From the NCBI GenBank assembly GCA_946406115.1, contig OX291545.1, positions 6,820,001 through 6,884,000 of the forward strand: a stretch of DNA of 64,000 bases, read 5' to 3'. Below, piece by piece: positions 37,331 to 54,759 of the stretch (positions within the stretch are counted from its first letter, which is position 1; the number at the start of each line of letters is the position of its first letter). The translations under genes and the position numbers were made by a program. Under the pieces are notes generated by a model that was given only the letters and a program-made list of their open reading frames with translations, did no database searches and had not been told where the DNA came from. Source of the DNA: Apoda limacodes. Its lineage: Eukaryota > Arthropoda > Insecta > Lepidoptera > Limacodidae.

Positions 37331-37694
37331 CCAAAATTCTTTGGTTTTCTACTATTTTCTATAAGAATATAAACATTTTGTTTGCATGCATGTGCAAAAT
37401 ACCAGCTGTAAATTATCCTCGATTACCTGCACTTTCACGCATGCGTGGTAAAATACTCGTGGTCCTGATACCTACTACCTATATTTTATGCAACCTTGGT
37501 ACAAATATTTCAGGGCGGGGGCGCCGAATTTGTTCGACAAGGTGACTTTGTAGGACACAACACATCAAACATCGGTCTGTCAAATTATCAATTCTGTATT
37601 GCCCGACTGACGGACGGAAGGTAATGTTTTTACGCGTATTTATGTGGGTATGTTTGTTACATTATGACCTCCTGTAGCTTTAATGGCTAGACAG

Positions 37695-37700
37695 TAGGTG
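37695..37700. repeat. Target-site duplication, left (TAGGTG)
   Basis: The six bases immediately outside the left element end are identical to those immediately outside the right end (54754-54759). Six bp is the duplication length known for Maverick/Polinton integrases. Confidence 0.85.
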
Positions 37701-37891
37701 TTTATTGGGCATTCTGGCTCACTTTCCGCAGCGCAGATGCTGGCGCATCTTCACTGCTCCAATTGAGCTAGAATGCCCAATAAACATTTTGGAATTGATT
37801 ACGTGCATCTGCGCTGCGGAAAGTGAGCCAGAATGCCCAATAAACATTTTGAAATTGATTACGTAAAGTTTTCAATTTGGGTGAATGTAAA
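37701..37891. repeat. Left terminal inverted repeat with extra terminal hairpin
   Basis: The inner part (37782-37891) matches the reverse complement of the right end over about 110 bp with few differences. Outside it lies an 81-bp extension (37701-37781) that can fold on the inner part. Arm 37701-37740 begins tttattgggcattctggctc; arm 37745-37784 ends agaatgcccaataaa. The duplication TAGGTG lies outside this extension. Confidence 0.85.
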
Positions 37892-37913
37892 TAGATTAAC
37901 GTATTTCATACCG

Positions 37914-37944
37914 ACCAACCTTCTTCTAGCTCTATGAACAAGGT
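37914..37944 (-). repeat. Left subterminal repeat core (inverted copy of right-end repeats)
   Basis: On the minus strand this reads accttgttcatagagctaga followed by agaaggttggt, matching with one or two changes the core repeated four times at 53928-54226. Flanking sequence up to about 37985 also matches. It may be a replication or packaging signal shared by both ends (inference). Confidence 0.75.
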
Positions 37945-38146
37945 ATTTTGGAGAGCATCATTCCGTTTTACGAGAGAAGAAGACATAAACTTACAAATAT
38001 ATACAAACCGTTCTGTTCTGTTCTAGTAGAAAAATGTTTTACCCTATTACAACTGTCGGGCAAATAATATTTCATTAATCAATTATAAAAATCTTACCTT
38101 TCTTTTATCTTTCGGTAGTCTTGTGTGTCAATGTCTCTCAAATTAA

Positions 38147-38154
38147 TATAAATA
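38147..38154 (+). promoter_or_regulatory. TATA box of the ATPase gene
   Basis: TATAAATA lies 58 bp before the ATPase ATG. TATAAA at 38905-38910 and TATAAATA at 41380-41387 lie 50-65 bp before the starts of the 338-residue and PLA2 genes, suggesting a shared promoter layout. Confidence 0.45.
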
Positions 38155-38211
38155 TGGAGTCATAGCGATTAGAGATTTCATTGCATAATTAACTTCTTTC
38201 ACCAAGACATC

Positions 38212-38898
38212 ATGAAATTTGTAAAGCAGCCACTAAAGCTACATTTAGAAAAAATATGTTCTGAATCTGATCTAGGCATATCACGTCATGGTAAACTATT
38301 ACCTAATTCGATTCGATGTTTGATTTGCGGACCATCTAACTGTGGAAAAACAAACCTAATAGTTGGACTTCTTTTGCATGAAAATGGTTTATGCTATAAA
38401 AATATATATTTATATTCCAAAACGCTTTACCAACCAAAATATATATTTTTAGAAAAAGTGTTAAATGAGGTTCCAGAAGTACAATTAATGAAATATAACG
38501 ATAATAGTGACGTTATAAGCCCTCATCATGCAAAACCTGATTCAGTAATTATTTTCGACGATGTTGCTTGTGAAAATCAAAATAACATTCGTGATTATTT
38601 CTCAATGGGGCGACATAAGCGTATAGACTGCTTTTATTTGAATCAAACATATAGTAAAGTACCTAAACAATTAATTAGAGATAATGCAAATCTTATAATT
38701 TTGTTTAAACAAGATGACATTAATTTACGACATGTTTATGATGAACATGTCAGTACAGATATGAATTGGAATCAATTTCGTGATATGTGTTCGGAAATCT
38801 GGAAAACTTCGTATGATTTCATAGTAATCAATAAAGACTGTGAAAAAAATAAAGGTTGCTATAGAAAAAAGTTTGATACTTTTGTCATTCTTGATTAA
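38212..38898 (+). CDS. Virus genome-packaging ATPase (FtsK/HerA type)
   Basis: A 228-residue P-loop ATPase expected to pump viral DNA into preformed capsids. The Walker A motif GPSNCGKT is at residues 40-47; the Walker B strand SVIIFDD is at 111-117. They are followed by a polar NQTYSKVP segment (sensor region) and an RDNAN motif that may hold the arginine finger. Length fits the compact A32-like packaging ATPases of Polintons, adintoviruses and virophages (usually about 200-280 residues). The ATG follows a TATA box by 58 bp and is the first gene inside the left end. The frame is fully open and all key residues are present, so the protein is probably functional in principle. Family assignment is confident; the exact relative is not. 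Confidence 0.9.
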   Translation: MKFVKQPLKLHLEKICSESDLGISRHGKLLPNSIRCLICGPSNCGKTNLIVGLLLHENGLCYKNIYLYSKTLYQPKYIFLEKVLNEVPEVQLMKYNDNSDVISPHHAKPDSVIIFDDVACENQNNIRDYFSMGRHKRIDCFYLNQTYSKVPKQLIRDNANLIILFKQDDINLRHVYDEHVSTDMNWNQFRDMCSEIWKTSYDFIVINKDCEKNKGCYRKKFDTFVILD

Positions 38899-38904
38899 AA
38901 CTCT

Positions 38905-38910
38905 TATAAA
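38905..38910 (+). promoter_or_regulatory. TATA-like box before the 338-residue gene
   Basis: TATAAA, 63 bp before the ATG at 38973 and just after the ATPase stop codon. Confidence 0.35.
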
Positions 38911-38972
38911 CGACAAAAACTCTGATATGTGTTTAGTGTTGTCTATAACATTGGTAAAGCTTATTGTGAAAA

Positions 38973-39989
38973 ATGGATTCGCAAGTAAATATCAAAAAAG
39001 AGATAATTAAATCAGCTAGCGTTGTTAAGAAAAAAGTTAGGCAGTTGCGTAATATTCAAACTGAAAATGATAAAGTCCTTAAATCTGTGTTCAAACCTTT
39101 AACGGATCCACTTCATAAAATGGTATCAAGAAATGCAACACAAAATATCAAACCTAATTACAATGAAGACGTAATCCCAGGGAAAAAAGCAAAATATATG
39201 AAAACTGAATTTGATTTTGATCTTCAGGGTGGAAGTGAATATGAAATAGATTCCGATGAACAGTGTGAAAAAGTTGATAAAACTCTTAAGAACTTTGATG
39301 ATTATGAAGACGATATCTATGAAGATGATTCAGAAAGTATGAGCGATACAAATAATAAAGAAACCAACATTTCAAGTGACGCTTCATTCAAAACAATTGA
39401 ATCTATTTCAAGTCCACAACATAATTGGTCACCACCTTCAGAAGGAACTGTAAAAGTATTGGAAGATATTCCATTTGGTGTTAGAAATGAACGTGGTAAA
39501 CTGATGATAGGTAATTCTCGAATTGTCCAAACAGAAAATACAATTTTAGTTTCTGGAAAGCCTTACAAAAAAACTGAAGGTCTAATGGAATTATTATTTA
39601 AAAGAATACCAGATTTAAAAACAATCACTAATAGTGACTTAAACAGTTACAAACAGATTTTAACTATTACAAATGCACATAGGCGTGACTTCAACCCTAA
39701 AAAACCAATTAAAAGTAATAAAGGAAGCAAGTACTTAAATATTATCAAACCACTTTTCAAGTTATCTAAGCAATGTACAAGCACCGAAAGTCTTAATCAA
39801 GGGTCTGGGTTACCAATTTTAAAAAAATATAATAAAAATGTGGATTATATGTATTGGGATGACCCTAATGAGTTAGTTGAAAGACTAAAACTTTTAATAT
39901 CTTCTCGTGATGCAGGAAACAGTGGATTAGACAATGAAATAATATCTATCGTAGAGGAGTTGCAAGAAGCTGGTATTATTAACAAATAA
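38973..39989 (+). CDS. Conserved Polinton/adintovirus protein with C-terminal YWDDPNEL motif
   Basis: A 338-residue protein with no enzymatic motif. Residues 1-60 are basic; 96-125 form a strongly acidic stretch (DDYEDDIYEDDSESMSD). The last 55 residues contain YWDDPNELVERL and NEIISIVEEL, a motif I recognise from proteins of Polinton-like elements in arthropods (recalled, not checked). Residues 84-87 (LQGG) before Ser fit the adenain cleavage consensus (M/L/I)xGG-x, so it may be a virion precursor cut by the protease encoded at 42134. It lies between the ATPase and the fibre-like gene in the structural block. Candidate roles are core, scaffold or minor virion protein; none is proved. Confidence 0.75.
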   Translation: MDSQVNIKKEIIKSASVVKKKVRQLRNIQTENDKVLKSVFKPLTDPLHKMVSRNATQNIKPNYNEDVIPGKKAKYMKTEFDFDLQGGSEYEIDSDEQCEKVDKTLKNFDDYEDDIYEDDSESMSDTNNKETNISSDASFKTIESISSPQHNWSPPSEGTVKVLEDIPFGVRNERGKLMIGNSRIVQTENTILVSGKPYKKTEGLMELLFKRIPDLKTITNSDLNSYKQILTITNAHRRDFNPKKPIKSNKGSKYLNIIKPLFKLSKQCTSTESLNQGSGLPILKKYNKNVDYMYWDDPNELVERLKLLISSRDAGNSGLDNEIISIVEELQEAGIINK

Positions 39990-40105
39990 AATATGAAAAG
40001 TAACGTATTACATGCATTCTTAACGATTTATTCAAATATAATACAGAGAACTTTATATTAACATTCAGTTGTAATCAAACCATTTAGGTATACATTTATT
40101 AAACA

Positions 40106-40441
40106 ATGAACGTTGACAAGTTTGGTCATCACGTGCATAAAAGATTGCGTTTGTCAGAAGTTTTCGATATTACTGACAAAGTATTTCTTAAGTCTATTAA
40201 TGGAGATTTAGACTTAATATCAGCAAGTATAAAAGGACTCAAAACACCTCAGCTACCTGACGAAGCCGTCAATAAGCAGTATGTAGATAATGTACTAAAA
40301 GAATATTGTGGAAAACAATCTTTCCTGCTCGAAATAAATGCTATAAAAAGCCTGATTCAAATTTTAAAAAATCAGTTGCTAGATATTAAATCAGAATTAA
40401 AAAAGGTTGGATCACAGAAAACCGCACCTAAACAATTATGA
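40106..40441 (+). CDS. Small fibre-like / coiled-coil virion protein
   Basis: A 111-residue protein. The N-terminal half contains LRLSEVFDITDK and an LPDEAVNKQYVDN motif (residues 50-62). That motif resembles the (A/V)xKxYVD register found at the stem of many phage tail-fibre and receptor-binding proteins. Residues about 66-102 are an amphipathic, probably coiled-coil helix. These features suggest a trimeric stalk or capsid-anchored fibre (inference). Its TGA stop overlaps the integrase ATG (ATGA at 40438-40441), so the two are likely translated from one mRNA. It is too short to hold a receptor-binding head, so it may only be the anchor. Confidence 0.7.
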   Translation: MNVDKFGHHVHKRLRLSEVFDITDKVFLKSINGDLDLISASIKGLKTPQLPDEAVNKQYVDNVLKEYCGKQSFLLEINAIKSLIQILKNQLLDIKSELKKVGSQKTAPKQL

Positions 40442-41364
40442 ACAGAGAAGACATAGTTGGTGAACTTCATAAATCAGCTAGAAAACACTTCATTCGTAGG
40501 GCGGTAATATTAAAAGGGATTGATGATTTATGGCAAGCTGATTTAATTGACATGCAGAAAATGGAAAAAGTGAACAAAGGTTTTAAATATATTTTAGTTG
40601 TTATTGACTGCTTTTCAAAATTCGCGTGGGGAGTTCCTCTGAAAACGAAAACAAAACGTGACGTAGGAAACGCTTTTAAAAAAATTTTGGATTGTGGTCG
40701 AGTTCCTATTATTCTTCAGACAGATATGGGAAAAGAATTTTACAATGAAGTGTTTAAGAAAATAATAACAACTTTTAATATAAATCACTATTCTACATAT
40801 TCTGTGAAAAAGGCGTCAATTGTTGAAAGATTTATAAGAACACTGAAATCAAAATTATATAAATATTTTACTTTAATTGGAAATAACAAATGGATCGGAT
40901 CACCTTTGAACGATGCTTTGTCATCATATAATGATACTGTCCATCGAACCATAAAATTTAAACCAATAAATGTAACATGTGATAACCAAACCGTCGTTAT
41001 GAATAACATAAAGAGGAATGAAACACCTCAGTACTTAAGAAAATCAAAATTAAAAGTAGGTGACTGTGTTCGGATTAGCAAATATAAAGAAAATTTCAAA
41101 AAGGGGTATACACCTAACTGGTCTTCTGAACTATTTACCATAACAAAAGTTAATAATACTTACCCAGTAACTTATCACATTCATGATCAAAGAAATCAAA
41201 TAATACTCGGATCCTTTTACGAACAAGAGTTGCAAAAAACTAAACATCCAAACATTTATTTAATTGAAAGAGTGATAAGAAAGAAAGGAAATAAATTATT
41301 TGTAAAATGGTTAGGACTCAATGAAAAGGAAAATAGTTGGATTAACAAAATGTCTATTGTATAG
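40438..41364 (+). CDS. Retroviral-type DDE integrase with C-terminal chromodomain
   Basis: A 308-residue integrase that would join the element ends to host DNA with a 6-bp staggered cut. The catalytic core has Asp35 (WQADL), Asp96 (LQTDMGKEF) and Glu130 (SIVERF), giving a D,D(33)E triad. It is followed by YNDTVHRTIKFKP, a stretch conserved in Polinton integrases. Residues about 270-306 form a chromodomain (YLIERVIRKKGNK, then VKWLG and NSWI), which in related elements may steer integration to particular histone marks. An SH3-like basic segment lies between. The N-terminus is short, with no complete HHCC zinc-binding set. The flanking TAGGTG duplication is the expected footprint of this enzyme. 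The frame is intact. Confidence 0.92.
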   Translation: MNREDIVGELHKSARKHFIRRAVILKGIDDLWQADLIDMQKMEKVNKGFKYILVVIDCFSKFAWGVPLKTKTKRDVGNAFKKILDCGRVPIILQTDMGKEFYNEVFKKIITTFNINHYSTYSVKKASIVERFIRTLKSKLYKYFTLIGNNKWIGSPLNDALSSYNDTVHRTIKFKPINVTCDNQTVVMNNIKRNETPQYLRKSKLKVGDCVRISKYKENFKKGYTPNWSSELFTITKVNNTYPVTYHIHDQRNQIILGSFYEQELQKTKHPNIYLIERVIRKKGNKLFVKWLGLNEKENSWINKMSIV

Positions 41365-41379
41365 TGTTTACTTTTAACT

Positions 41380-41387
41380 TATAAATA
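41380..41387 (+). promoter_or_regulatory. TATA box before the PLA2 gene
   Basis: TATAAATA, 56 bp before the ATG at 41436, in the short gap after the integrase. Confidence 0.4.
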
Positions 41388-41435
41388 CTTTATAATTGTA
41401 AGATATTCAACCATGTATTCATTTTAAATTCAGTG

Positions 41436-42158
41436 ATGAACGGTGGAGGACTTGTTAATAATATTGTAAACAATTTACCATTTGAACTTCATTTACCAGG
41501 ATATAATTATTGTGGTCCTGGTACGAGACTACAAGAAAGATTGGCTCGAGGTGACAAAGGGATAAACGAATTAGACGAGGCTTGTAAGCGTCACGATATA
41601 GCATATTCCGAACATCGTAATTTAGAAGATCGTCATAAAGCTGACTTTGCGCTTCTGAATATGGCAAAACAAAGAATGAAGTCAAAAAATACTAGAACCG
41701 GAGAAAAATTAGCGTCTTGGCTCGTAAGCAAAGTTATGAAAACTAAATTAAAAAATGGTGCTGGAGTTAAATCTTTTAAGTCAGTCGTGTCTAAAATCCG
41801 TAATTATATGAAAAACCGCAAGCCAAAAGATAACAATACTGCTATAAAGATAGCCTACTTGACTGCAAAAAAATTATTTAAAAATAAAAATGTTTGCTTA
41901 CCCCGTCTTATACCAATACCAAAATCTGGAGAGATTCTACCACTTATACCAATTTTTGCTGGCTTATCTGCATTAGGGTCTTTAGCTGGAGGAGCTGCAG
42001 GTATTGCTAAAGCAGTGAATAGCTATAAATCAGCAAAGCAAAACCTTGAAGAGTCACAGCGTCATAACAAAATGTTGGAATCTATTGCGTTAGGAAAAGG
42101 TCTCTACATCAAACCTTATAAAGGTAACGGATTATGTTTAAAATCAGCAAAAAACTAA
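41436..42158 (+). CDS. Phospholipase A2 / pX-like fusion virion protein
   Basis: A 240-residue protein. I chose the ATG at 41436; the codon before it is GTG. Residues 26-29 (CGPG) form a calcium loop and residues 50-57 hold the catalytic His53-Asp54 (CKRHDIAY), as in parvovirus VP1 and adintovirus phospholipase A2 domains that breach endosomal membranes. A basic middle section (about 99-163) leads to a hydrophobic Gly/Ala-rich segment (168-195, LPLIPIFAGLSALGSLAGG). It ends in GKGLYIKPYKGNG, which resembles the adenovirus pX/pVI-type capsid cement peptides. MNGG-G at the N-terminus fits the protease consensus. The last 25 bases overlap the protease gene. It probably combines membrane penetration with genome or capsid contact. 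Confidence 0.85.
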   Translation: MNGGGLVNNIVNNLPFELHLPGYNYCGPGTRLQERLARGDKGINELDEACKRHDIAYSEHRNLEDRHKADFALLNMAKQRMKSKNTRTGEKLASWLVSKVMKTKLKNGAGVKSFKSVVSKIRNYMKNRKPKDNNTAIKIAYLTAKKLFKNKNVCLPRLIPIPKSGEILPLIPIFAGLSALGSLAGGAAGIAKAVNSYKSAKQNLEESQRHNKMLESIALGKGLYIKPYKGNGLCLKSAKN

Positions 42159-42526
42159 CTAGAAGGCTACCTAGACGTGCTTTAACGAATGTAGATATTT
42201 TAAAGCACACTAATGATATACCGTATTTTCGAGGAGTATTCATGAAAGATGCTTTACCAAAAAAACCTAAAGATATTGAGTGTGCGATTGTCAATTTGGA
42301 TAACTCTAAGAATCCTGGAACGCACTGGGTAGCCTATATAAAAATTAACAACTACTGTGAGTACTTCAATAGTTTTGGAAATCTAAGACCACCCCAAGAG
42401 TTACTGTCCTATTTAAATTTGTCTAATGTTTATTACAATTACAATGTTTATCAGAACTTTAATACTGTTAATTGTGGTCACTTGTGTATAAAATATTTGA
42501 ACAATTTTTGGCATTCAAAAGAATAA
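42134..42526 (+). CDS. Adenain-like maturation cysteine protease
   Basis: A 130-residue protease of the adenovirus/Polinton (C5-like) family that would cleave capsid and core precursors inside the particle. His64 sits in GTHWVAY, Cys114 in NTVNCGHLC, and Gln107 may form the oxyanion hole. The position of the catalytic acid, between Phe78 and Ser80 of the YFNSFGNL motif, is Asn79, where adenovirus has Glu and related proteins usually have Asp. The enzyme may therefore be weakened or use another residue. It begins inside the end of the PLA2 gene in another frame, implying leaky scanning or reinitiation. Length is a little short compared with about 200 residues in adenovirus, but normal for compact Polintons. 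Confidence 0.85.
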   Translation: MFKISKKLTRRLPRRALTNVDILKHTNDIPYFRGVFMKDALPKKPKDIECAIVNLDNSKNPGTHWVAYIKINNYCEYFNSFGNLRPPQELLSYLNLSNVYYNYNVYQNFNTVNCGHLCIKYLNNFWHSKE

Positions 42527-42561
42527 ATTAAGATAATTCAATAAAATAAACCATTTTAATC

Positions 42562-43233
42562 ATGTCTTTCACGCTGTCAATATCTGGATTCACATCAAGC
42601 TTAAATACTTGTTATTCTCCTGCTCTACAGTTAGACGGAGATTACGAATGTGGTCTTTTATACTTTTCTACTTTTAACTCTATTCCAAACGTTGAAAGTA
42701 AAAATAATAAATTTCATTATGGTGATAATGAAGTGATTGAAATTCCTGAAGGATCTTATGAACTACAGGACATTTGTGACTATATAAAGAAAAATATTAG
42801 AAGCAGCACCTTTAGTTTAACTTGTAACAATAATACTTTACGTACTGTAATTTGTTGCTCTAAAGACATTCATTTTGAAAAAGAAAATTCTATTGGGAGT
42901 ATTCTCGGATACAATAAAAAAACATTACAAAAGAATAAATTTCATGAATCACAGATCCCAGTCAGTATTCTTTCTACCACTGTTGTCCGAGTTGAATGTG
43001 ATATTGTCTGTGGATCCTTTATTAATGGAATTCCAAGCCACATAATCCATGAATTTGCACCTAATGTTCCGCCTGGATATAGAATTATTGAGGTACCAAA
43101 GAATATAATATATTTTCCGATTAATCAAAAGACTATCAGTAGTGTAAATATAAAAATTTTAGATTCACAGAACAAGTTAGTTAATTTTCGGGGAGAAGAG
43201 GTACTACTGTACCTACATCTGAAGAAAAAATGA
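42562..43233 (+). CDS. Penton-like minor capsid protein
   Basis: A 223-residue protein expected to fold as a single jelly roll and occupy capsid vertices. Recognisable blocks include VVRVECDIVCGSFING (about 139-154), HIIHEFAPNVPPGYRIIEVP (159-178) and LVNFRGEEV near the end, which I recall as conserved in Polinton/adintovirus minor capsid proteins. The N-terminal half (GDYECGLLYFSTFNSIPNV) also fits that family. Its stop codon overlaps the start of the 56-residue ORF (ATGA at 43230-43233). Its position just upstream of the major capsid gene is the usual order. The frame is intact. Confidence 0.82.
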   Translation: MSFTLSISGFTSSLNTCYSPALQLDGDYECGLLYFSTFNSIPNVESKNNKFHYGDNEVIEIPEGSYELQDICDYIKKNIRSSTFSLTCNNNTLRTVICCSKDIHFEKENSIGSILGYNKKTLQKNKFHESQIPVSILSTTVVRVECDIVCGSFINGIPSHIIHEFAPNVPPGYRIIEVPKNIIYFPINQKTISSVNIKILDSQNKLVNFRGEEVLLYLHLKKK

Positions 43234-43400
43234 TAGACTTTCACCAAATTAATATAAATTCTTTTTCACGACCAAAGAAGCTCAGAAAGATACAGGTAAT
43301 TCGCAAAAGAGCACCTGTGTCACTAACATCTACTAACTTAAAAAAAAAATTAAGTGTTGAAAATAAAGACTTTTTAAAATTAATTGGATTACTAAAATGA
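43230..43400 (+). CDS. Small basic 56-residue protein between capsid genes
   Basis: An ATG-started ORF of 56 codons linked at both ends by ATGA stop-start overlaps: with the penton gene (43230-43233) and with the major capsid gene (43397-43400). The peptide is rich in Lys and Arg (RPKKLRKIQVIRKR) with a hydrophobic C-terminus. Small basic peptides in this position could be DNA-condensing core proteins or capsid cement peptides; no family was recognised. The exact fit between neighbours argues that it is real and translationally coupled. Confidence 0.6.
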   Translation: MIDFHQININSFSRPKKLRKIQVIRKRAPVSLTSTNLKKKLSVENKDFLKLIGLLK

Positions 43401-44608
43401 GTGTATTAAACGTAGCGCAACCTATAGTATTTGATAATACTATAGAAAGCATGGAAATTCATTCGTATAAGCCATATATCACTACTTTTAATAAAAATGA
43501 TGAAAAAAGAATACCTATCAACCAACAAGACTTGTACGTATTGCCATCAGCGAGTACAATATACCTAGAAGGAATGGTCATCGTTAAAAAAGGAGATCTA
43601 AAAGATGTTGCAACTAGCGTTAATTTTACTAACAACCCCATTTTATTTCTGTTTCAAGATGTTCGCTATGAACTTAACGGAGTTGAAATAGATAGAATTA
43701 AAAATGCTGGTATAACAACAACTATAAAATCATTTTTGTCTATGAATGAAAATGAATCAAAAATTTCGAAAGCATGGGGTTGGGATATAGATGGAACAAA
43801 AAATACAAGATCAGGGAATTTTGCAGTATCTATACCACTGAACAAAATGCTTGGATTTGCTGAGGATTATAATAAAATAATAATGAATTGTAGACATGAG
43901 CTAATACTTTTACGCAGCAATACTAATCTAAACGCAATAAAACTAAACACTGGAGAAGTAATAGATGATATCATACTTAAAAAAATTGTTTGGCGTGTTC
44001 CACATGTAAAAGTTTCCGATCGAGAAAAACTAAATCTATTAAAATATCTAGAAAAAGATCGTTCAATCAACTTGTTATTCCGAAACTGGGACTTGTATGA
44101 ATATCCCTTATTACCAAAAACAACAAAACATACATGGGTAATTAAAACGTCTTCACAAATAGAAAAACCGAGATATGCTGTTATTGCATTTCAGACAGAC
44201 CGAAAAAATAAATCAGAAAAAGACATGTCACACTTCGATCACTGCAATATAAGAGAAGTTAAAGTATTTTTGAATTCAGTGTATTTTCCCTATGAGGGTC
44301 TTAATGTTCGATTTGATGAGGATAAATTTGCTTTATTATATGAACAATACACTAGATTCCAACAGTCTTACTACGGACGACGTCCTGAACCCTTGCTAAG
44401 TTATAAAGAATTTAGAGATAAAGTACCGTTATACGTTATAGATTGCTCAAGACAGAACGATACACTTAAAACTGGCCCAGTTGATGTTCGTATCGAAATA
44501 GAGAGTGATAAAGATATACCAAATCTAACTTCTGCGTATTGTTTGTTATTAAACGATTGCATATTTGAATACAAACCCTTAAGCGGTATAGTGAAAAAAA
44601 TATCATGA
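43397..44608 (+). CDS. Major capsid protein (double jelly roll, hexon-like)
   Basis: A 403-residue protein. The segment FLFQDVRYELNGVEIDR (about residues 85-101) is a signature I associate with insect Polinton/adintovirus major capsid proteins. Later blocks include NLLFRNWDLYEYPLLP (about 223-238), the strand-rich HTWVIKTSSQIEKPRYAVIA-like region and FDHCNIREVKVFLNS. Trimers of such proteins build pseudo-hexagonal capsomers. Start and stop overlap the 56-residue and 161-residue ORFs (ATGA each), so the capsid block behaves like a single transcription unit. It is shorter than adenovirus hexon, but of a size expected for this group. The frame is fully open. Confidence 0.87.
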   Translation: MSVLNVAQPIVFDNTIESMEIHSYKPYITTFNKNDEKRIPINQQDLYVLPSASTIYLEGMVIVKKGDLKDVATSVNFTNNPILFLFQDVRYELNGVEIDRIKNAGITTTIKSFLSMNENESKISKAWGWDIDGTKNTRSGNFAVSIPLNKMLGFAEDYNKIIMNCRHELILLRSNTNLNAIKLNTGEVIDDIILKKIVWRVPHVKVSDREKLNLLKYLEKDRSINLLFRNWDLYEYPLLPKTTKHTWVIKTSSQIEKPRYAVIAFQTDRKNKSEKDMSHFDHCNIREVKVFLNSVYFPYEGLNVRFDEDKFALLYEQYTRFQQSYYGRRPEPLLSYKEFRDKVPLYVIDCSRQNDTLKTGPVDVRIEIESDKDIPNLTSAYCLLLNDCIFEYKPLSGIVKKIS

Positions 44609-45090
44609 ATATTACCGGACCTATTTTCGTAGACTTACAAGGCTTTAAGGATTCTCATAATAAATTTATTGTAAAAGAATTTGCCTTGGCTACCTCAGAA
44701 TACACTCAAGTATTTCTAATAAAACCACCATATCCCTTTTCTTATTTGACTAAGGAAGAAAAAAGAAATGTATCTTGGTTAGAAAGTAATCGCGGTATTT
44801 ATTGGAGTGACGGTTACATAGATTATCAAGAATTTAGAAAACTTATCAAACTAATTTTAAAACACCAATATTTGCTTTTGAAGGGTAGAGAAAAAATCCT
44901 ATGGATTAATGAACTTTGTACAGAATGTAATGTTGAAGATATTGCAGAAAAGGGATGCCCTAATTTTCCTAATTTGTACAGCACCTATTCTAAAGGGCAA
45001 AAAAACAAATGTTTTAATCATAGAAAATATTGTGCTCTGGAAAATGTTATTTGTATTAAGAAATGGTGCAATGAAAATGTGGACGTTTAA
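44605..45090 (+). CDS. Conserved Cys-rich 161-residue protein, function unknown
   Basis: Begins at an ATGA overlap with the major capsid gene. The N-terminal part (FVDLQGFKDSHNKFIVKEFA, then FLIKPPYPFSYL and NRGIYWSDGYI) resembles a protein family repeatedly seen near transposons and viruses of arthropods (recalled). The alternating strands and the early Asp could fit an RNase H-like or exonuclease-like fold, but a complete catalytic set is not visible. The C-terminal 55 residues hold eight Cys plus two His (ELCTEC, GCPN, CFNHRKYC, CIKKWC), probably a zinc-binding module. It is the last gene of the rightward block and is followed at once by a poly(A) signal. Confidence 0.65.
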   Translation: MNITGPIFVDLQGFKDSHNKFIVKEFALATSEYTQVFLIKPPYPFSYLTKEEKRNVSWLESNRGIYWSDGYIDYQEFRKLIKLILKHQYLLLKGREKILWINELCTECNVEDIAEKGCPNFPNLYSTYSKGQKNKCFNHRKYCALENVICIKKWCNENVDV

Positions 45091-45096
45091 AATAAA
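45091..45096 (+). terminator. Poly(A) signal of the rightward gene block
   Basis: AATAAA directly follows the TAA of the 161-residue gene; a second AATAAA is at 45255-45260. No other strong signal lies between the capsid genes, consistent with shared 3' ends. Confidence 0.5.
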
Positions 45097-45284
45097 ATAC
45101 TTGAATTAGTTTAAAATATAATAGTTTAGTTTTTTCATTTGTGTACAAATGTATAATATAAGTATTAAGTATTAAAATATATTAACTAAGTATAAGTATT
45201 TTGCTTAACTAAGTTTAAGTATTTTTATTAAGAAAATTCAATAAATGTTATAACAATAAAACATTTTTTATTTAATTTCTATTC

Positions 45285-45755: not shown

Positions 45756-45759
45756 ATTT

Positions 45760-46166: not shown

Positions 46167-46691
46167 TTAACAACAAGTCAAATAGTTATAAAAATATGAA
46201 CTACCAAAAAGTAAAAGTTCTTGCACAGCTAAAACGTTAGATTTACTTTTATAAAAATGAAGTACCATTTCAATTTGACTGACAGTTAGGGTATTATAAC
46301 AAGCTAAATTATTTTTTATATTATGTACAAAATGACTAACTATTACATAGTCATGCTTAAGTAAATAGTTTAATCTTAATTCTACACAATGACAAAATGT
46401 ACTAAGAGCACCACAAATTAAAGAAATCACATTTTCAGGACAACGTTTTTCACAAAAAAGAAGTTGGTATAGAATAGTCATGTTGTCTATACATTTCGAG
46501 TTGATTTCAATGTAAATTCTGTGCCATTCCTTAGTAGTAATAAATAAATCATAATTCTCGCTATTGACAAGGATATGAATTTGTGGTAAGAAATTATTGA
46601 CTGCCCATAATCCTGTAGTTACATAAATATTATTTGAATATACATAATTATGTTTTGAAATAATAATATCGGTTAAATAACTTTCTGCCAT
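46167..46691 (-). CDS. Unknown 174-residue protein downstream of the polymerase
   Basis: The ATG at 46691 (MAESYLTDII) lies 17 bp after the polymerase stop; the longer frame from 46733 begins with TTG and is not used here. The protein is mostly hydrophobic and helical, with scattered Cys (CEKRCPENVISLICG, CHCVELRLNYLL) and no signal peptide or enzymatic motif that I recognise. Its position suggests a replication-associated or virus-specific accessory gene cotranscribed with polymerase. The frame is intact. Confidence 0.6.
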   Translation of the reverse strand: MAESYLTDIIISKHNYVYSNNIYVTTGLWAVNNFLPQIHILVNSENYDLFITTKEWHRIYIEINSKCIDNMTILYQLLFCEKRCPENVISLICGALSTFCHCVELRLNYLLKHDYVIVSHFVHNIKNNLACYNTLTVSQIEMVLHFYKSKSNVLAVQELLLFGSSYFYNYLTCC

Positions 46692-46708
46692 CTTCGCAAC
46701 AGTGATAT

Positions 46709-49700
46709 TCAGAAAAATGAGCAATGTCCCCAAGCAAACGTTTTTATGTTGTCTTCCATTATTCGACGTTTTTCGTCATTGGAAGACAAAGCTACTTTGT
46801 TAACAGATCTTGTAAATATTTCATGTTTAAGAGACTTAAAAAAAACATTTTTTCTTCGTAGGATTTTGTCTTTTTTCTTCAAAGACTTATAATAGTCATT
46901 GAAATGAACACCAGTTAAAACATATTTTTGAACACCTTTAGCCTTTTTTATTTCGCACGATTCCGTTCTAATACAATATAACTTAGATCGCAACCCAACA
47001 AACTCTACAATATTTTGACCTCCTAATTCATCTTTAAACAAACCTGGCACTTTTTTGTTGACGCGTTCAATTTGATATTTATTTGGCTCCGAGTAGTTAC
47101 TTGTATCAAAATAGTGCTTTAAATTTAGATTTAAATGCCTATAGAAGTCTTTTGTTTCTATTGAATATAAAAAACTATCAGTATCGGTATAACACATTTT
47201 TAAATTAGAGCCGTAAAAAGGTTTCATAATAGTATAGTGAAAATTATACATATGGCTTTTGGATAGTTCTAAGACTGTGAAACCTATGTATATAGGTTTA
47301 TCAAGGACTACTTTTTCTGGTTTCAATTGAACAGCTACACAATTTTCGGTAAATGTAGTTGAACTATGAAAGTTAGGTCTAGATATTAACTGCTCTGCAC
47401 AGTAATTTTTTTTTGTCTTGTTTTTATCATCACTCCATTGATTTACTATTTTAACGTCTAATCTATTCTCTGTGTTTTCCAAAGTTTTTCCAAATATGCT
47501 GTTATTCATTAGTTTGAAAAAGTCTTGTTCAAATACAGATTTAGCTTGTTGCCTTAGTTTAGTGTTTAGGTCAATATAGTCTTTTAGATAAGGGCTTTGT
47601 TTGAATTTTATTACTCGATGCACGGTAGTCAACTTAAGTCCCGCTTTTAAACACAGTTTCAAATGGACGTAATGAATAACGTAAAAAATTTGTCGTATAA
47701 ATTAGGAATCAATTTTGATGTTTTTGAACCGGGTGGAACACATTTTTGAGGACAGAACGGTAAATCATTGTGTGAATCATGAAGTTCTTCTGGATATTCG
47801 ATATCTACTTCTAAAATGTACCCATATTCGTTTTCGTCTGGTATTTTGCAAACGTTTAATTCATCGATTTCTCGTCTATCTAATAGTCTAAAATCAGAAT
47901 ATGGTAAGTATGCGCACATAGCGTAACCATATAAATTGTTACAATCAATATAAATAAGGTACTTCTGAGGTTCAGCAGGGTTATAATTATTTAAATACTT
48001 ATTGTTGGCTTTTGCGAACCGCGTAGAACATAAGCATACTCCTCCCCGTATTCCTTTTTGAAGCATTCGAATGATTTCTAGATCATTAATAAGTTCTAAT
48101 TTAATATTAGTTTTTAATAACATGCTGTCCCAGCTCAAAGCAGGAGCTGTCAAATAATAAGCAGCATCGACTTCGAAATTTAACCTACAAGTAGCTCGAA
48201 ATTTTTGAAAAACATCGGCTAATAATAAAATATCCGTAAGTAGGTACAGATCTGTGTATTTCCCTAAATTTTGAATCTTAAACGTATTCCAAACCTTAAG
48301 GGCGTGATTATAGTCCTCTTTAGAGATATTTTGATTTGTTAGTGTACTAAAAAAATCTTCATAGGACGGTAAGTTAGTTTCGTCATACGATTTCCAGCTT
48401 TTCATATATTCATACGGATATACTCCTTTGCGTCTCAACAATTTAAACTTTGTTTTATTCGTAAAAAACTTAGACAAGTTGACCAAGTCTACTGTAATTA
48501 AATTTTCCGCTAACTTTTGTAAACTAGCTCCTAAAAATTTAAATGAATCTACAAAACGGACTGGAACAAAGCTTCCTTCTTCGGTTGAAAAAAACTTTGT
48601 AAATGAAATGTAATTTTCTTTAGTTTTAGCTATAACTTTTATTTTGCCACGAATATCTCCCAGCTCACGTATAAATAAATGTGCATCGTAGCCTGAAAGG
48701 TTGTGAAAAAACACTGGAATGAATTTTGGTAATTGGAAATGTATATTGCAGTAAGAATGTGCGGCACCCCTATATTTGCCTGTTAGGTGGTCATGATCTC
48801 TTACTTTATCATCAAATAACAATTGGGAGCAAATAGAACAGTCTCTGGCATTAGTGAAATCTTTTGAATTATTTTCGGTAAATATCAATGGCACAGGATT
48901 TTTCAAAATTTTATATATCTTTAGAACGTCGCGTTGAAGATATTCTATAAATTTCTCAACACAGTTTGGACCCCGATATGACACATATTTATTTAAAGAA
49001 GTATCGTACGAGCATACAATGTAATAACCAAACGCGGCAGGAACATGTTTTTGCAAGTCTGACGTAAAACCTCCTTTGTTAAAAGTTTGATTTGTTTGGC
49101 ATGGTTCTAAAAAACATTCGAAATCTGCATAAATGACAAAGGGTACGTCTTGCATACGCTCAAAATGCGTAAACTGTAAAATTGAGCCTTTATTAGGCAA
49201 TTTGGTCGATACCCCTCCACATACATGCTCATCAAAATTAGTTTTACAATTAAAAAAAAGCAAGCAGTCATCACAAAAAAAGATTTTCCCATGATGTTTA
49301 GTAGTTTGGGATCTAACCAATCGTTCCAAGTTTTTAATTAGACAGTAATGACTACGGGACTTATTTTGCAAGAATAGAAGATTGACATGACGCTTTTTTC
49401 TATGTGTTGTTCTATACAATGGTCCAATTATTTTATTATTGGAATTCAAGCCGTAAACGTTGACACTAATTCTGTGATTATTTTTTTCAAATATTTTAAT
49501 GTCCGAGAATGTCGCCGGAAATGCCATATTTTTGGTGTTAAGTACATCTTCGAAGTGAGGATAAGACGTAGTTCTATCTGCGTTTGATTTAGCTGGGAAC
49601 AATGCTGCAATTATACTCCACAAAAAACAAAAATTATCGTTATTTTTTACATTAATACAAGCTTTTTTATTTTTTACATATTTTGGCAATTCAATAAAAC

Positions 49701-50268
49701 TCGAAGCTCTTAAAGGTGAATACCGATTTAAATTAATTTCTAAATACAGGCTTTTTAAAAATGACCACCCACTGTCCTTCTCTTGGAATTCGCTAATTTT
49801 TTTGTTTATTTTTGACACAAGATCAGAATACAAGTGGTTAAAATTGTAATTTTGATGAATAATTACATTTTCTGTTGCAAAAGATTTAATTTCAATATAG
49901 TCATTTTTCGGTAAAATGAACTCTCCAAAAAATTCAAAATTTACTTTTAAATTAACATGTTGTGCTAATTTAACATCGATAAGCTGTCGTACAGCACGAC
50001 GCAAAGGTATTCGAGATAAGAACGTGTGAGGTGTAAGCAGATACGAATTTGCTGAGCTGTTACTTGATGGCGACCTCGAGGCATTGCTAGTGGGGCAATG
50101 CACCCTGTAACTAGAAATACGGTTTCTAAATGCTGAACTAATTTTTTCTACACATTCATTGATCTCAATAGCGCTATTATTCTTATGAATATTACTACGA
50201 AGATGGGCAGAAAATATCCTACTCGAAACATCTTGTTCGCAAACAGTACAAAAAACTTTTTTACTCAT
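46709..50268 (-). pseudogene. Protein-primed DNA polymerase B, broken by one frameshift
   Basis: The N-terminal ORF (50268-47659, 869 residues) has a C2H2 zinc finger at residues 7-28 and a Cys/His block around 210-315 (NNDNFCFLWSI, then SHYCLIKNLERLV) reminiscent of an OTU-like fold. It also has a zinc/HNH-like segment (CSIC..DHDHLTGKYRGAAHSYCN, about 480-510). Exonuclease motifs are ADFEC (about 381) and NLSGYDAHLF (about 523); polymerase motif A is IDCNNLYGYAM (about 774). The frame ends shortly after NLYDK. The C-terminal part (47662-46709) begins without an ATG and holds motif B (MNNSIFGKT) and motif C (YTDTDS). Reading resumes in the -1 frame at a T-run (A-run near 47690 on the plus strand), so a single-base contraction explains the break. 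All catalytic motifs survive. It copied the element DNA from protein-primed ends. Confidence 0.9.
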
Positions 50269-50607
50269 ATTTACATAGATCAGTAGTATGGCTCTTAGGA
50301 GTTGTTAGTGTGGTCATATATCTACCGTCGGAAAATCTAAATTTCTATAAACAAAAAAAACCAAATTTAAAAAAAGTATTCGTATTTTAAGCACATTAAG
50401 GAAGTTGTTAATAAAATGACTAATTTAGGTTATCTACTTTTTATCCCAGGAAAAAATTAGTAATTTATCTGGTATTATATGTAATCAAAATTATACTTCA
50501 TATGTTACTAAAATAATTTGTATGATAAAAAAAACTAAGTACAGTATCTACCTATTTAGTTACTTTATTATTACTAATAAAAAAAATTTAGGAGCTAGTT
50601 TACAAAA
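50269..50607. other. Polymerase upstream region
   Basis: AT-rich spacer between the polymerase start and the 3' end of the spliced gene. A weak tatatgac lies about 60 bp upstream of the polymerase ATG. No ORF is seen. Confidence 0.4.
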
Positions 50608-50610
50608 GTT

Positions 50611-52246
50611 TCATTCTTTTTTATTAGAGTAAAACTTGCCTTCTTGGACAAACTTTAGCTTTGCTTTTCTGAGAAAAATTCTTAGTTCCTCCAAATCGGA
50701 TGACGACGCTTGAAAGCGTAACGCAACTTGGGCTTTCTCCAAACGCTCTTTCCACCCAGTAGCAGCGATAACGTCTTTGGTGTTGTAAACTCTCAGCTCG
50801 ATGAAAGTATCGCCGTCGAGTTCCGCAGTCCGACGCAGCACACCATCCGCCACTCGCCGGGTCAGAGACGACGTAAGTCCCTGCTGAGCGGCAGCACGAG
50901 CAGACCGAGAAGCTTCAAGTTCGTCTTCACTGTCCGAAGACAGGAGTCTGTAGCTCGAGGACCGTTTTCGTGATGATTGCGGACAATGAGCGCTCAGCGA
51001 TGCAGTCACAGTTCCTCGCGCCTTCCCTTCCACTTTCTTGCGCGGTTTTTTTACTTTTGGCTCTGCCTTAACAGAACTTGCTTCGATCCTGTGTATCAAA
51101 AATATAAGTAGTCAATATTTATTTCCATAAAGAAATTATGTACTGCACGTACAGTATTCTTAATACTACCAGTAATAAATAGGCCTCAGTATTCTTATTT
51201 AAAGTACTAATTTATGTTTAAAAATAAATATTAATGTTATAAAAACAATGGCTTTACTATCCTCTTTAATCATTAGGGTTTGGTATTTAATTTGAATACA
51301 GTGAACTTAATAAGTAATGAAACTATTAAAAGCGTAAGACAAAATTAATCTCTTACAACACACCTTCAACAATCCGAATCTAGATACTTTGGACACTTGA
51401 TATAAACACTTTTACTAATTACGTCTTTAATCCGAACATAATACAAAAAAAAAAGTGTGCAGTCAACAAGGCAAGTAAGATAAGTTCGGATTAAATAGGT
51501 AGGAATAGTTGGTAGGAGTGTTTATATAAAGTGTCCCAAAGTATCTAGATTCGGATTATGGAGGGTGTGTTGTATGGGAGATATGACAAAACTAGAAATT
51601 CTGAGGTCAGCTTTTGGAGTTATAAAAAGATTTATGTAAATTACATTTTTCAACAAAAATAATTGAGTTTTCCATATTAAACTAACCTAGTCTCACCGTC
51701 GTCTGAATCGGAAAAGGAAAAGCAGGTGGTTCCCTCTTTTCCAACCTTCCTCTTCTGTTTGAATTCAAACTCCGACCTGTAACAATATAGTAGTTAGAAA
51801 GATCTTGACTTCTCATTATATTTATTGACGTATTTACCTAAAATTGATTCGCATTATTTAGAAAAGTAACAAGAACAGGGCCTTTATTCAATTACGAACA
51901 AATCATATGATTTCGAGATGATTTTGACCTACGCTGCCGCTTTACATCGTTAGTCTTTTCTTTCATGTTTCAGAACGTTAAGCCATAGAGTCATCTCGAA
52001 ACAAGATGGATTACACAGAGTTAAATAAAAGCCTGTTATAAAATTAACATTACAGATTTATGTACAGATAATACTAAGTTTAAAACTTTAATTTAAAATA
52101 AATAATTAAACAAACACACAGATTACTTCAAAGTTAAAACTTACGAACATAATTTTTGATGCTTTGATCCTCAGCTTGAAAATTAGAAGTTCACCAATAG
52201 CAGCTTCACAGCTTGGTTGTTTAGCAGCACTTATTCACACCCAAGA
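50611..52246 (-). CDS. Spliced, GC-rich, serine/basic-rich gene of unknown function
   Basis: The last exon (50611-51088) is open to a stop at 50611 and encodes a Ser/Lys/Arg-rich region (KVKKPRKKVEGKARG, SSRKRSSS, SSDSEDELEASRSA) followed by a C-terminal alpha/beta-like part (DTFIELRVYNTKDVIAATGW, DLEELRIFLRKAKLKF). A phase-compatible upstream exon (51687-51776, 90 bp) has a consensus acceptor (ttgttacag) and donor (AG/GTTAGT) and adds SEFEFKQKRK and SDSDDGETR. A further exon ending in a GTAAGT donor at 52145 joins in frame, but I found no ATG in it, so the start is unknown. Acidic and basic patches suggest a nuclear protein. Its exons are far richer in GC than any other viral gene, hinting at different origin. 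Confidence 0.55.
51356..51572. mobile_element. MITE inside an intron of the spliced viral gene
   Basis: 217 bp flanked by TA on both sides, with long inverted ends starting caacacacc; the arms (about 65 bp: aatccgaatctagatacttt, then tataaacact) match closely. TA duplications fit a Tc1/mariner-type nonautonomous element. It must have entered after, or together with, the virus copy. Confidence 0.75.
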
Positions 52247-52249
52247 GTG

Positions 52250-53848
52250 TTGGAAATTGTGTATATTTTTAACCGGAAAATAAGGCTTAAAAAGGGAAAA
52301 GTCAGAGATCTGCAACCTTTTATTACAGTTAACTATAATCAGAAGAAATTAAATCGTACACACTGGTACCCTACATAATCAGCTGACACCGAGCGATAGC
52401 AAATTAGACTCCAACAGAAAAGACCTTGGTTTTCTTAGTTCAAGAGTCAAGTAACATAAATTGTAGTTTAACCTACAATAAAGTACTATGAAGTGTAGGT
52501 TAACCAAACTTATATTATTATAAACAGGTATTTACGTTCATACTAAATAAAGATTATTCAAGTTTTATACGCTTACTGTTATACGTGTTTAGTACAAATA
52601 TATTGTTAAGTCATCTAAATTTATAATATACCAATTAGGTTTTCTACCCCTTAAATTGTTTCAAGTCAGCAAAACGGCATTCCCATAGAAAAGATTGAAG
52701 AATAAATATATTTAATTACTATTTTATTTTACATTAATAACAGAAATATGAAGTACAAAGAATATGCCGCTATTTGGTTTGGGGTTCAATGTTGAATATA
52801 AGAATGGTTCTACTCAGTGTCCGCGAATATAAATTACTTATATGTTATAATTAATTGTTTTGGCATACCTTATTTATGTTTGTAAGGAAAAATAAGATAA
52901 AGGTCAAACTAGTAAAATAAAAAGTCTTGTGCTTTAATGTTAAAACAAGTTACCTACTCGAATATATATTTTTCAATTACCTTAATTACTTATAGTTTTT
53001 TAATTTTTAAACCTCAAAAGGCTCGCTTAAAAGTTTATGTTTGTTTTCTTAATCATATTATTTTGCTCTAAGTATATAGTACCCAATAGAAATAACAAAA
53101 CTAAACCATAAATAATTAAACAGGTACGTAAGGAACCCAGAGCAGATTATGCCGCTTAGATATCGTAACACAAAGAAAAGCCGCATTAATGTTTCTTTCC
53201 ATAAGATTTGTAGAATAGGTAGCTACTTGGTTTACGCTGCACAGCAGTCACGTTTTGTTGGATATGCAATAAAACTGGGGACTTACCACGAAAACTTTTA
53301 TGAAATCGAGTGTTGATCAAAATCATTAGTGAAATTTTACATATATTCAGGCTTAAGGTTTCATTAGATTAAAAAAAATTAAAACTTAAACAAACATTAT
53401 GTACAAAAGCATAACTTTCATTTTAAAAAATCTTTCTGCATTCTTCATTTATATTTTAACAATTAAAGTTAATTATGGTTAAAGATATTTTAAGACTTGT
53501 CCTATTTGCTATAACCTTTTGTAAAAAACTAAACGTAAGTTTGATTTTAAAAACACTGTGTAACGAAAGTATCTTTCGTTATCGCTGACCGATTAAGATG
53601 TTTGATCGACAGTGTTAATGGTGAAGCGCCTGATTTATGGGAACAGTTTTCATTTCAAACAATTGTTCTAATATGTGCGTACGTCATTTTATTATATATA
53701 AAATTACATGTTTAGTAAAAAACATCTAAATCTGATTTAAGATATGTAGATAAAATTTTGGAGTTTAATTTGTTCTGTTTTAGAAGAAGCCTGTGTAATA
53801 ATAGATCATATCGTTTACTGCGATAACGAAAGTTTTAACTTTAAAAAT
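52250..53848. other. Right-end noncoding region of the element
   Basis: About 1.6 kb without ORFs longer than 60 codons. A perfect short hairpin (aacgaaagta/tctttcgtt) is at about 53562-53581, and ctttcgttatcgc recurs inverted near 53820 (gcgataacgaaag). It may hold promoters or upstream exons of the spliced gene, or decayed genes. Confidence 0.4.
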
Positions 53849-54260
53849 CATGTGCTTAGAGTTAGATAAGATGAGTGTGTTAAGTTATCCCTCCCTGTAT
53901 CCTAAAACGGAACGATACAGCCTAAACACCTTGTGCATAGAGCTAGAAGAAGGTTGGTCATGTCAAGTACGTTATCCTTTCCTGTTGCCTTGTTTTGAAA
54001 AATATGGTCTAAACGCCTTGTGCATAGAGCTAGTAGAAGGTTTGTCTGTATCTGTGTCAAAACATATTTTCTCTCCTATATCCTAATACGGAACGATACG
54101 GCCTAAACGCCTTGTGCATAGAGCTAGAAGAAGGTTGGTCATGTCAAGTACGTTATCCTTTCCTGTTGCCTTGTTTTGAAAAATACGGCCTAAACACCTT
54201 GTGCATAGAGCTAGAAGAGGGTTGGTCTGTATCTAATCTATGTTAAAACTTTTCTCTTTC
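53849..54260 (+). repeat. Right subterminal repeats, 181-bp unit in two copies
   Basis: Two tandem units (about 53894-54074 and 54075-54255), each with two half-copies of the core cttgtgcatagagctagaag at 53930, 54017, 54111 and 54198 (spacing alternating 87 and 94 bp), plus a degraded copy at 53850. The same core lies inverted at the left end (37914-37944). The open frame 53850-54086 is repeat-derived. Confidence 0.85.
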
Positions 54261-54570
54261 CTGTAAAATAGGAGTCCGATCTGCTCGGAGCACATGTTTT
54301 CCTTTGTCATTGCAGTAAACGATAGGATCTTACCTAGAACAAAATGGTTCAATTCCATTTAGTTGTTCTTCTATTTATCTTGTCTATCTTCAGACATATA
54401 TTTTCAAGAATTAAACTAATTACAAATGTTTATCTAAATGTCATAAATCCTAATTTAAACAAAATCTAGTGTAATAGTGTGCAAGTGGAAGTCATGAAAA
54501 ATATTTATTGGTAAGTTTTTATTAGTAAATTAATCATTCGCTGTGGTTATTTAAAAAACTATTTCGTGTC

Positions 54571-54753
54571 GTTTACATCACCCAAATTGAAAACTTTGCG
54601 TAACCAATTTCAAAATGTTTATTGGGCATTCTGGCTCACTTTCCGCAGCGCAGATGCACGTAATCACTTTACGTAATCAATTTCAAAATGTTTATTGGGC
54701 ATTCTGGCTCACTTTCCGCAGCGCAGATGCACGTAATCAATTCCAAAATGTTT
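54571..54753. repeat. Right terminal inverted repeat (tandemly doubled)
   Basis: Contains two direct copies (about 75-bp period) of a unit with tttattgggcattctggctc and cgcagcgcagatgcacgtaa, and ends in ccaaaatgttt. The outer 110 bp match the left end at 37782-37891 in reverse complement. Just outside is TAGGTG. Confidence 0.88.
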
Positions 54754-54759
54754 TAGGTG
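54754..54759. repeat. Target-site duplication, right (TAGGTG)
   Basis: Identical to 37695-37700; the bases beyond it differ from the left flank, giving exactly six duplicated bases. Confidence 0.85.

What the first reader, a model, noticed from the sequence alone, without database searches (positions are those of the whole stretch)
37695..54759. Complete endogenous adintovirus/Polinton with both ends and a 6-bp target duplication
Seen: TAGGTG at both borders, inverted ends, and a full set of replication, integration and capsid genes in 17,053 bp, nearly all open. Known: Maverick/Polinton and adintovirus elements have this gene set and duplicate 6 bp. Inferred: a comparatively recent integration of a virus able to build particles, and the most likely undescribed system in the window.
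Basis: partly seen in the sequence, partly recalled or inferred. Interest (0 to 1): 0.88.

Follow-up and report, generated by a model that had tools for sequence, protein, structure and literature searches.

The report
Broken copy of abundant insect Polinton

Summary
The gene set is confirmed: a Polinton/adintovirus with the gene order published for Sf Maverick 2 of a moth. "Both ends and a 6-bp target duplication" is not. TAGGTG at 37695 belongs to the element's terminus AGTAGGTG. Of 15 other copies whose right end was fetched, 10 showed both exact termini, and all 10 have a perfect 6-bp duplication just outside AGTAGG...CCTACT; an eleventh with one changed terminal base does too. The window copy lacks the right terminus and the matching hexamer, and its polymerase frame is broken, privately (15 of 15 comparable copies in frame). 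It is a dead member of a large young family: 218 exact terminal matches; 58 of 79 near-identical capsid genes without stop; at least 23 open polymerases. Changes shared between copies are mostly silent in virion genes (7 N:19 S) unlike private ones (119:64; p = 4e-4), suggesting spread with working capsids; the integrase does not show this. New point: the terminal 84-nt imperfect palindrome occurs in both orientations, at either end, independently, resembling parvovirus flip/flop, though most inverted ends are damaged. A new member of a known kind with an unusual end structure.

The parts
37687..37692 (+). CTAGAC: the hexamer that would be the left copy of the true target duplication
   Evidence: position just outside AGTAGGTG, where 10 of 10 copies with both exact termini have their duplication; no partner at the right border
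37693..37700 (+).
   Evidence: constant in other copies with different flanks; 218 exact matches of terminus plus 17 nt genome-wide, control 0
37701..37784 (+). 84-nt imperfect terminal palindrome: arm A 37701-37740, loop TGGC 37741-37744, arm B' 37745-37784 ('flop' orientation)
   Evidence: flop with terminus, up to 3 mismatches, at 111 places genome-wide, control 0
37785..37864 (+). inner inverted-repeat units (20-nt m, 40-nt A', 20-nt n); number of 60-nt units varies between copies
38212..38898 (+). packaging ATPase (A32/FtsK-HerA type)
   Evidence: Pox_A32 3.2e-6, above cut-off; Walker A GPSNCGKT, Walker B VIIFDD
38973..39989 (+). 338-aa protein in the position of Sf Maverick ORF2
   Evidence: no family hit in Pfam or NCBIfam; position compared with PMC5803895
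40106..40441 (+). 111-aa small protein, function unknown
   Evidence: ORF; only hits far below cut-offs
40438..41364 (+). retrovirus-type integrase with C-terminal chromodomain
   Evidence: rve 6.2e-12, Chromo 1.5e-4, the latter below Pfam's cut-off
41433..42158 (+). phospholipase A2 protein (parvovirus VP1-like; CAP of Sf Mavericks)
   Evidence: Phospholip_A2_4 1.9e-14; solved chains named 'Capsid protein', best E 3.3e-4, then 'Capsid protein VP1' 0.037
42134..42526 (+). adenovirus-type cysteine protease
   Evidence: Peptidase_C5 0.0038, below cut-off; HW and CGH motifs
42562..43233 (+). 223-aa probable penton/minor capsid protein (ORF6 position)
   Evidence: position only; no meaningful family hit; fold of the single sequence unusable, pLDDT 34
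43397..44608 (+). major capsid protein, double jelly roll (hexon)
   Evidence: DJR-like_dom 4.8e-114; 93% best relative, 72% to Spodoptera moth adintovirus 1 hexon
44605..45090 (+). 161-aa protein in the ORF8 position
   Evidence: ORF; no hit above a cut-off
46167..46733 (-). 188-aa gene downstream of PolB, no database relative found
   Evidence: no protein at E <= 0.001 (16 candidates); in the own genome the first 50 rows by score of 150 scored matches are full length without stop
46709..50268 (-). PolB, broken in this copy: frames 47659-50268 and 46709-47701
   Evidence: DCNNLY, KLMNNSIFG and YTDTDS found; frame break not in 15 of 15 comparable copies; other copies have open frames of about 1198 aa
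50611..51099 (-). 162-aa G+C-rich accessory gene
   Evidence: 4 database relatives, 48-56% identity; first 50 rows by score of 151 genomic matches are full length without stop
53894..54234 (+). 181-nt subterminal tandem repeat, partly inverted copy at 37903-37951
54578..54753 (+). right terminal repeat, truncated: palindrome and CACCTACT missing

Best explanation
It is one inactivated copy of a recently and massively amplified lepidopteran Polinton/adintovirus (now Eupolintoviridae). Shown: integrated copies end in 5'-AGTAGGTG and are flanked by 6-bp duplications of host DNA; virion genes carry few shared replacement changes. Inferred: new copies arise through a linear DNA form copied by its own PolB, packaged in double-jelly-roll capsids and inserted by the integrase with staggered cuts. 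Inferred: next to each terminus an 84-nt imperfect palindrome folds back when the strand is single and is often inverted or damaged while ends are copied, giving both orientations at either end. Inferred: after insertion this copy lost its right terminus with the adjoining target duplication, and its PolB frame; it cannot move by itself.
For: Gene set and order (PMC5803895). Terminus and 6-bp duplications. Copies: 103 scored MCP matches; the first 79 rows are near full length at 98% or more, 58 of 79 without stop. PolB break private (15 of 15 comparable of 20 fetched). N:S in virion genes 119:64 private against 7:19 shared, p = 4e-4. Palindrome: flip is exactly the reverse complement of flop; B-outer ends at 65 places (218 ends of either kind); orientation at the two ends of one element independent (17 AA, 11 mixed, 3 BB; expected 16.3, 12.3, 2.3).
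Against: Shared integrase changes are not depleted in replacements (12 N:6 S). Of the virion genes only MCP is significant alone (p = 0.004; PLA2 0.39, protease 0.47, ORF6 0.18), and private changes in protease and ORF6 are themselves below the neutral ratio (0.48, 0.51). The copies were ranked by MCP identity (98% or more), which can lower N. Five of 20 fetched PolB pieces did not span the break. No Pfam polymerase model matched the split ORFs. The penton rests on position. No empty site was seen: among the scored matches none but the window's own covers the first 327 bases of the right flank.
Confidence: 0.88

Rival explanations
1. One reading: a complete element with TAGGTG as its 6-bp target duplication.
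For: TAGGTG is at both borders in direct orientation; a match exactly at one fixed pair of positions has roughly a 1 in 4000 chance (own estimate).
Against: AGTAGGTG follows different flanks in other copies and duplications lie outside it; the listed genome-wide termini include the window's left end and none at its right border (the window has one match).
Confidence: 0.03
2. The family spreads as a transposon inside cells; capsid genes are passengers.
For: Very high copy number within one genome; shared integrase changes not depleted in replacements; 15 of 20 sampled copies have damage in at least one of five genes.
Against: Shared changes in virion genes are mainly silent (7 N:19 S) while private ones are not (119:64), p = 4e-4. 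A passenger gene should not show this.
Confidence: 0.2
3. The two palindrome orientations are not made by end replication but by recombination between the arms, or by palindrome damage in the chromosome after insertion.
For: 10 of 12 B-outer ends have a damaged inner arm against 4 of 32 A-outer ends (p = 2e-5); the outer AGTAGGTG did not invert in the ends classified; the outer 15 nt of both arms are identical, which allows exchange.
Against: Both orientations occur at either end and independently within one element; two ends are clean inversions (L020 with one private base, L039).
Confidence: 0.45

Closest known systems
Sf Maverick 2 of Spodoptera frugiperda (Sf Mavericks 1 and 2: KY042018, KY042019; PMC5803895, passages and section 11 part 1 of 2 read)
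   Same: series of small tandem genes (ATP, ORF2, INT, CAP/PLA2, PRO, ORF6, ORF7, ORF8; order inferred from its numbering and tables), then POLB on the opposite strand; chromodomain integrase; endonuclease VII match in POLB
   Different: about 72% MCP identity to the Spodoptera proteins; one more small ORF (111 aa) before INT; 188-aa and 162-aa genes not among that paper's nine; ORF6 223 aa here, 148 aa in its table; termini not described in what I read
Adintoviruses / family Eupolintoviridae, formerly Adintoviridae (PMC12451622 and PMC11071296, passages; the founding paper PMC8502044 is not held)
   Same: PolB, hexon, retrovirus-type integrase with chromodomain
   Different: N-terminal OTU domain of PolB not tested; alpha/beta class not assigned
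Vertebrate Mavericks (PMC8097293, passages and section 8 read)
   Same: 6-bp target duplications; (AGT)2-type end motif close to AGTAGG; purifying selection on virion genes
   Different: host group; at most 38 intact copies in one genome there; there all eight core genes are under selection, here the integrase shows no sign; invertible palindrome not mentioned in the passages I read
Parvovirus inverted terminal repeats, flip/flop (recalled, no call)
   Same: imperfect terminal palindrome present in both orientations
   Different: no Rep/NS1-type match in the ORFs scanned; a constant 8-nt terminus lies outside the palindrome; most inverted forms classified are damaged

Membership tests
[quoted passage not shown]
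   PF21738 4.8e-114
Polinton/Maverick (Eupolintoviridae) | retrovirus-type integrase with C-terminal chromodomain | tested here: met
   rve 6.2e-12, Chromo 1.5e-4 but below Pfam's cut-off
Polinton/Maverick (Eupolintoviridae) | packaging ATPase | tested here: met
   Pox_A32 3.2e-6 above cut-off; Walker motifs
Polinton/Maverick (Eupolintoviridae) | adenovirus/Ulp1-type cysteine protease | tested here: inconclusive
   Peptidase_C5 0.0038, below cut-off; H and C motifs and gene position fit
Polinton/Maverick (Eupolintoviridae) | protein-primed family B polymerase | tested here: inconclusive
   PolB motifs found by pattern and endonuclease VII match 2.2e-4 (below cut-off), but no Pfam polymerase hit on the two split ORFs; about 1198-aa open frame in other copies
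Polinton/Maverick (Eupolintoviridae) | penton/minor capsid protein | tested here: inconclusive
   right position, no family hit, fold unusable
Polinton/Maverick (Eupolintoviridae) | terminal inverted repeats with AG...CT termini | tested here: met
   AGTAGG...CCTACT in other copies; left terminus only in the window
Polinton/Maverick (Eupolintoviridae) | 6-bp target site duplication | tested here: met
   family: 10 of 10 copies with both exact termini, plus 1 with a changed end; window copy itself: not met, right end lost
Polinton/Maverick (Eupolintoviridae) | OTU-like domain in N-terminal PolB | not tested
   no structure of PolB predicted
Parvovirus-like hairpin telomere replicon | imperfect terminal palindrome in both orientations | tested here: met
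   intact inverted form seen in only 2 of 44 classified ends
Parvovirus-like hairpin telomere replicon | Rep/NS1 nickase-helicase | tested here: not met
   14 ORF translations scanned against Pfam, none matched such a family

The most novel reading that the evidence does not exclude
A protein-primed, capsid-forming animal DNA virus whose linear genome ends in short hairpin telomeres that invert (flip/flop) afresh as ends are copied, outside which a fixed AGTAGGTG is restored each time for integration; it is still multiplying in this insect, where a second, even more uniform lineage coexists.
Probability: 0.3. Interest if true: 0.75.

Novelty: new member of a known kind. Interest (0 to 1): 0.48.

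Why it matters
Whether Polintons are viruses or transposons is an old question; the abstract of PMC8097293 (2021) says Maverick particles had not been observed. A genome with about a hundred or more near-identical copies gives the numbers to test it from sequence: virion genes here carry a mark of selection during the spread, as that paper reports for fish Mavericks. The invertible palindrome gives a testable clue to how such ends are copied.

Tried and rejected
Rejected: TAGGTG as target duplication. Rejected: the 50.6-51.1 kb G+C-rich ORF as a private host insertion - it is in other copies. Rejected: programmed frameshift or shared defect as the reason for the split PolB - comparable copies are in one frame.

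Led nowhere: IMG/VR searches with one MCP and with 16 aligned MCPs gave no confirmed relative; protein search of the 188-aa gene gave none at E <= 0.001; PDB search of the PolB C-part none; single-sequence fold of ORF6 pLDDT 34; ends of the second lineage not caught in L094, L095; the PolB piece had no shared changes (private 13 N:2 S). The genome-wide count of the full inverted palindrome did not complete, so an intact flip is known only from 2 of 44 classified ends. A DNA search for right ends did not complete either. Literature searches. For hairpin, flip-flop or palindrome with Polinton/Maverick: one search found no paper; two searches listed 15 of 38 and 10 of 44, none on this point by title or abstract start; of these I opened only PMC6431247 and PMC11071308 (passages). 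I also saw passages of PMC8363768.

Rows dropped: L070 (rearranged integrase) was left out of the INT, PLA2, PRO and ORF6 counts but kept in MCP; with it, one search had INT at 159:40 private and 14:9 shared. L025 (complex inverted structure) and two of L018, L019, L032 (one insertion) were left out of the 44 ends, as were ends without the terminus (L011, L024, L028, L029, L033; L046, L051), L040 and L045 (right end not reached), seven loci whose anchor was not found, and L115 and L120, which lost the palindrome. Pairs come from the first 100 of 218 termini and assume that facing termini 10-36 kb apart belong to one element.

Full report
WHAT WAS CLAIMED. The finding claims a complete adintovirus/Polinton between 37695 and 54759 with a TAGGTG target duplication.

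GENES. The + strand carries a packaging ATPase, a 338-aa protein, a 111-aa protein, an integrase with chromodomain, a phospholipase A2 protein, an adenovirus-type protease, a 223-aa probable penton, the double-jelly-roll MCP and a 161-aa protein; the - strand carries PolB, a 188-aa and a 162-aa gene. The protease and chromodomain matches are below Pfam's cut-offs and the penton rests on position. This is the arrangement published for Sf Maverick 2 of Spodoptera frugiperda: eight small tandem ORFs and POLB on the other strand (PMC5803895). The MCP has 1691 relatives at E <= 0.001; of the 120 listed, those named with an organism are from moths and butterflies, including Spodoptera moth adintovirus 1 at 72%; the best is 93% and unnamed. 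The host is therefore probably a moth or butterfly (inference); its assembly is unnamed, 800 Mb in 31 contigs.

ENDS. The left TAGGTG sits in AGTAGGTG|TTTATTGGG. I read 30 left ends, the window's own included (L009-L038): 25 have this junction after different host flanks (three of the 25 are one insertion duplicated); 5 lack it. I then fetched 15 predicted right ends and compared 14 with their left ends. Ten elements had both exact termini and all ten have an identical hexamer immediately outside AGTAGG and CCTACT; an eleventh has one changed terminal base and the same hexamer on both sides; in three a terminus was missing or not reached, and the fifteenth fetch held no element sequence. So TAGGTG is part of the element. 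Genome-wide the terminus with 17 more bases occurs 218 times exactly, 0 times in the reversed control. The window has the left one only. Its right side stops at 54753 inside the repeat, without palindrome and CACCTACT, and CTAGAC does not follow. The right TAGGTG is most simply chance at a deletion junction, but I cannot exclude that it is a remnant of a rearranged end. Of 31 elements paired from the first 100 listed termini, 16 are 17.0-17.5 kb long, median 17.3 kb.

STATE OF THIS COPY. PolB is in two overlapping frames. Of 20 other copies fetched at that place, 15 span it; all 15 are in one frame and 14 have no stop there. In a genome search of the PolB C-part 125 matches were scored of 1420 candidates; 23 at 97% or more have an open frame of 1187-1210 aa without stop in the matched part, the window's is 330 aa. 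The break is private to this copy as far as compared.

THE FAMILY. Of 103 scored MCP matches (679 candidates), the first 79 rows are near full length at 98% identity or more, and 58 of these 79 have no stop. In 20 copies read from integrase to MCP, 5 are open in all five genes. MCP pairwise difference is 0.64% on average over 44 sequences, with 2.5 private changes each; with a recalled butterfly mutation rate of 2.9e-9 per site and generation this is about 0.7-1.1 million generations, less if change was faster in a viral phase. A second lineage (72% MCP, 3 rows; 63% PolB-C) appears in 18 rows, 16 of them with the same score and 15 with an open 1172-aa frame; it is not counted fully.

VIRUS OR TRANSPOSON. 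If capsids were needed, changes inherited by several copies should avoid replacements while private changes should not. In MCP (44 sequences: the window, 20 copies, 4, 19; the pool was the 79) private changes are 74 N:36 S and shared 3:10 (p = 0.004). Pooled with PLA2, protease and ORF6 (window and 19 copies each): 119:64 against 7:19 (p = 4e-4). Alone, PLA2, protease and ORF6 are not significant (0.39, 0.47, 0.18). The integrase does not follow: 31:9 private, 12:6 shared, with several amino-acid variants present in 6-9 of 20 sequences. Counts are small and copies were chosen by MCP identity, which may bias towards low N. That the family spread with functional capsids agrees with vertebrate Mavericks (PMC8097293, passages).

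THE INVERTIBLE PALINDROME. Inside the terminus lies an 84-nt imperfect palindrome, arm A, loop TGGC, arm B'. In some copies its reverse complement stands there instead. I classified 44 ends (22 left, 11 left, 11 right): A outside in 32, of which 28 have an intact palindrome; B outside in 12, of which 2 are intact (L020, L039) and 10 have lost much of the inner arm or more, at varying points (p = 2e-5). Genome-wide, B outside occurs at 65 places and near-exact flop at 111; the intact flip count did not complete. Within one element the two ends are independent: 17 AA, 11 mixed, 3 BB against 16.3, 12.3, 2.3 expected. Two separate sublineages would not give this. Fold-back of single-stranded ends during copying is my preferred cause (inference); exchange between arms or palindrome damage after insertion are close rivals, and the strong link between inversion and damage is unexplained.

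VERDICT. A real, young, but damaged member of a known kind of element. The genome-wide family, the selection contrast and the palindrome are worth more than the single copy.

Noticed in passing
G000 C1, C5, C6, C8, C10, C16, C18, C19, C22, C26, C27, C28: Second Polinton lineage, 63% identical in the PolB C-part: 18 rows, 16 with identical score, 15 with an open 1172-aa frame; looks younger than the window's family.
   Followed up: partly
window 50611-51099 (-): 162-aa gene with 50% G+C and GC3 0.46 against 0.21-0.31 in the other 11 ORFs; relatives at 48-56% on other contigs; possibly a terminal exon (CAG before it; not tested).
   Followed up: partly
L025 (near G000:C20:16318000): Terminus, several A units, palindrome, reverse terminus, then about 30 nt of host flank inverted before the element interior: a fold-back of end plus host DNA.
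   Followed up: no
G000:C12:24.10-24.19 Mb; C3:4.59-4.76 Mb; C16:9629762-9631647: Clusters of termini: two intervals of exactly 18,379 bp on C12, three with the same flank on C3, three 930 bp apart on C16; probably tandem or segmental duplications.
   Followed up: no
window 40438-41361 and copies L054-L073: Several integrase amino-acid variants each present in 6-9 of 20 sequences, unlike the virion genes; linkage into haplotypes not tested.
   Followed up: partly
L115, L120: Left ends in which the palindrome is lost and the whole or part of the terminus joins the inner repeat directly.
   Followed up: no
window 51349-51579: Hairpin of two 44-nt arms 143 nt apart (89% complementary) inside the element, perhaps a small nested mobile element.
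   Followed up: no
window 19.8-26.3 kb: ORF fragments that look like LINE reverse transcriptase and endonuclease (by eye, from the translations).
   Followed up: no
window 2863-3035 and 33637-33819: Tandem repeats of 24 nt (7.2 copies) and 35 nt (5.2 copies).
   Followed up: no
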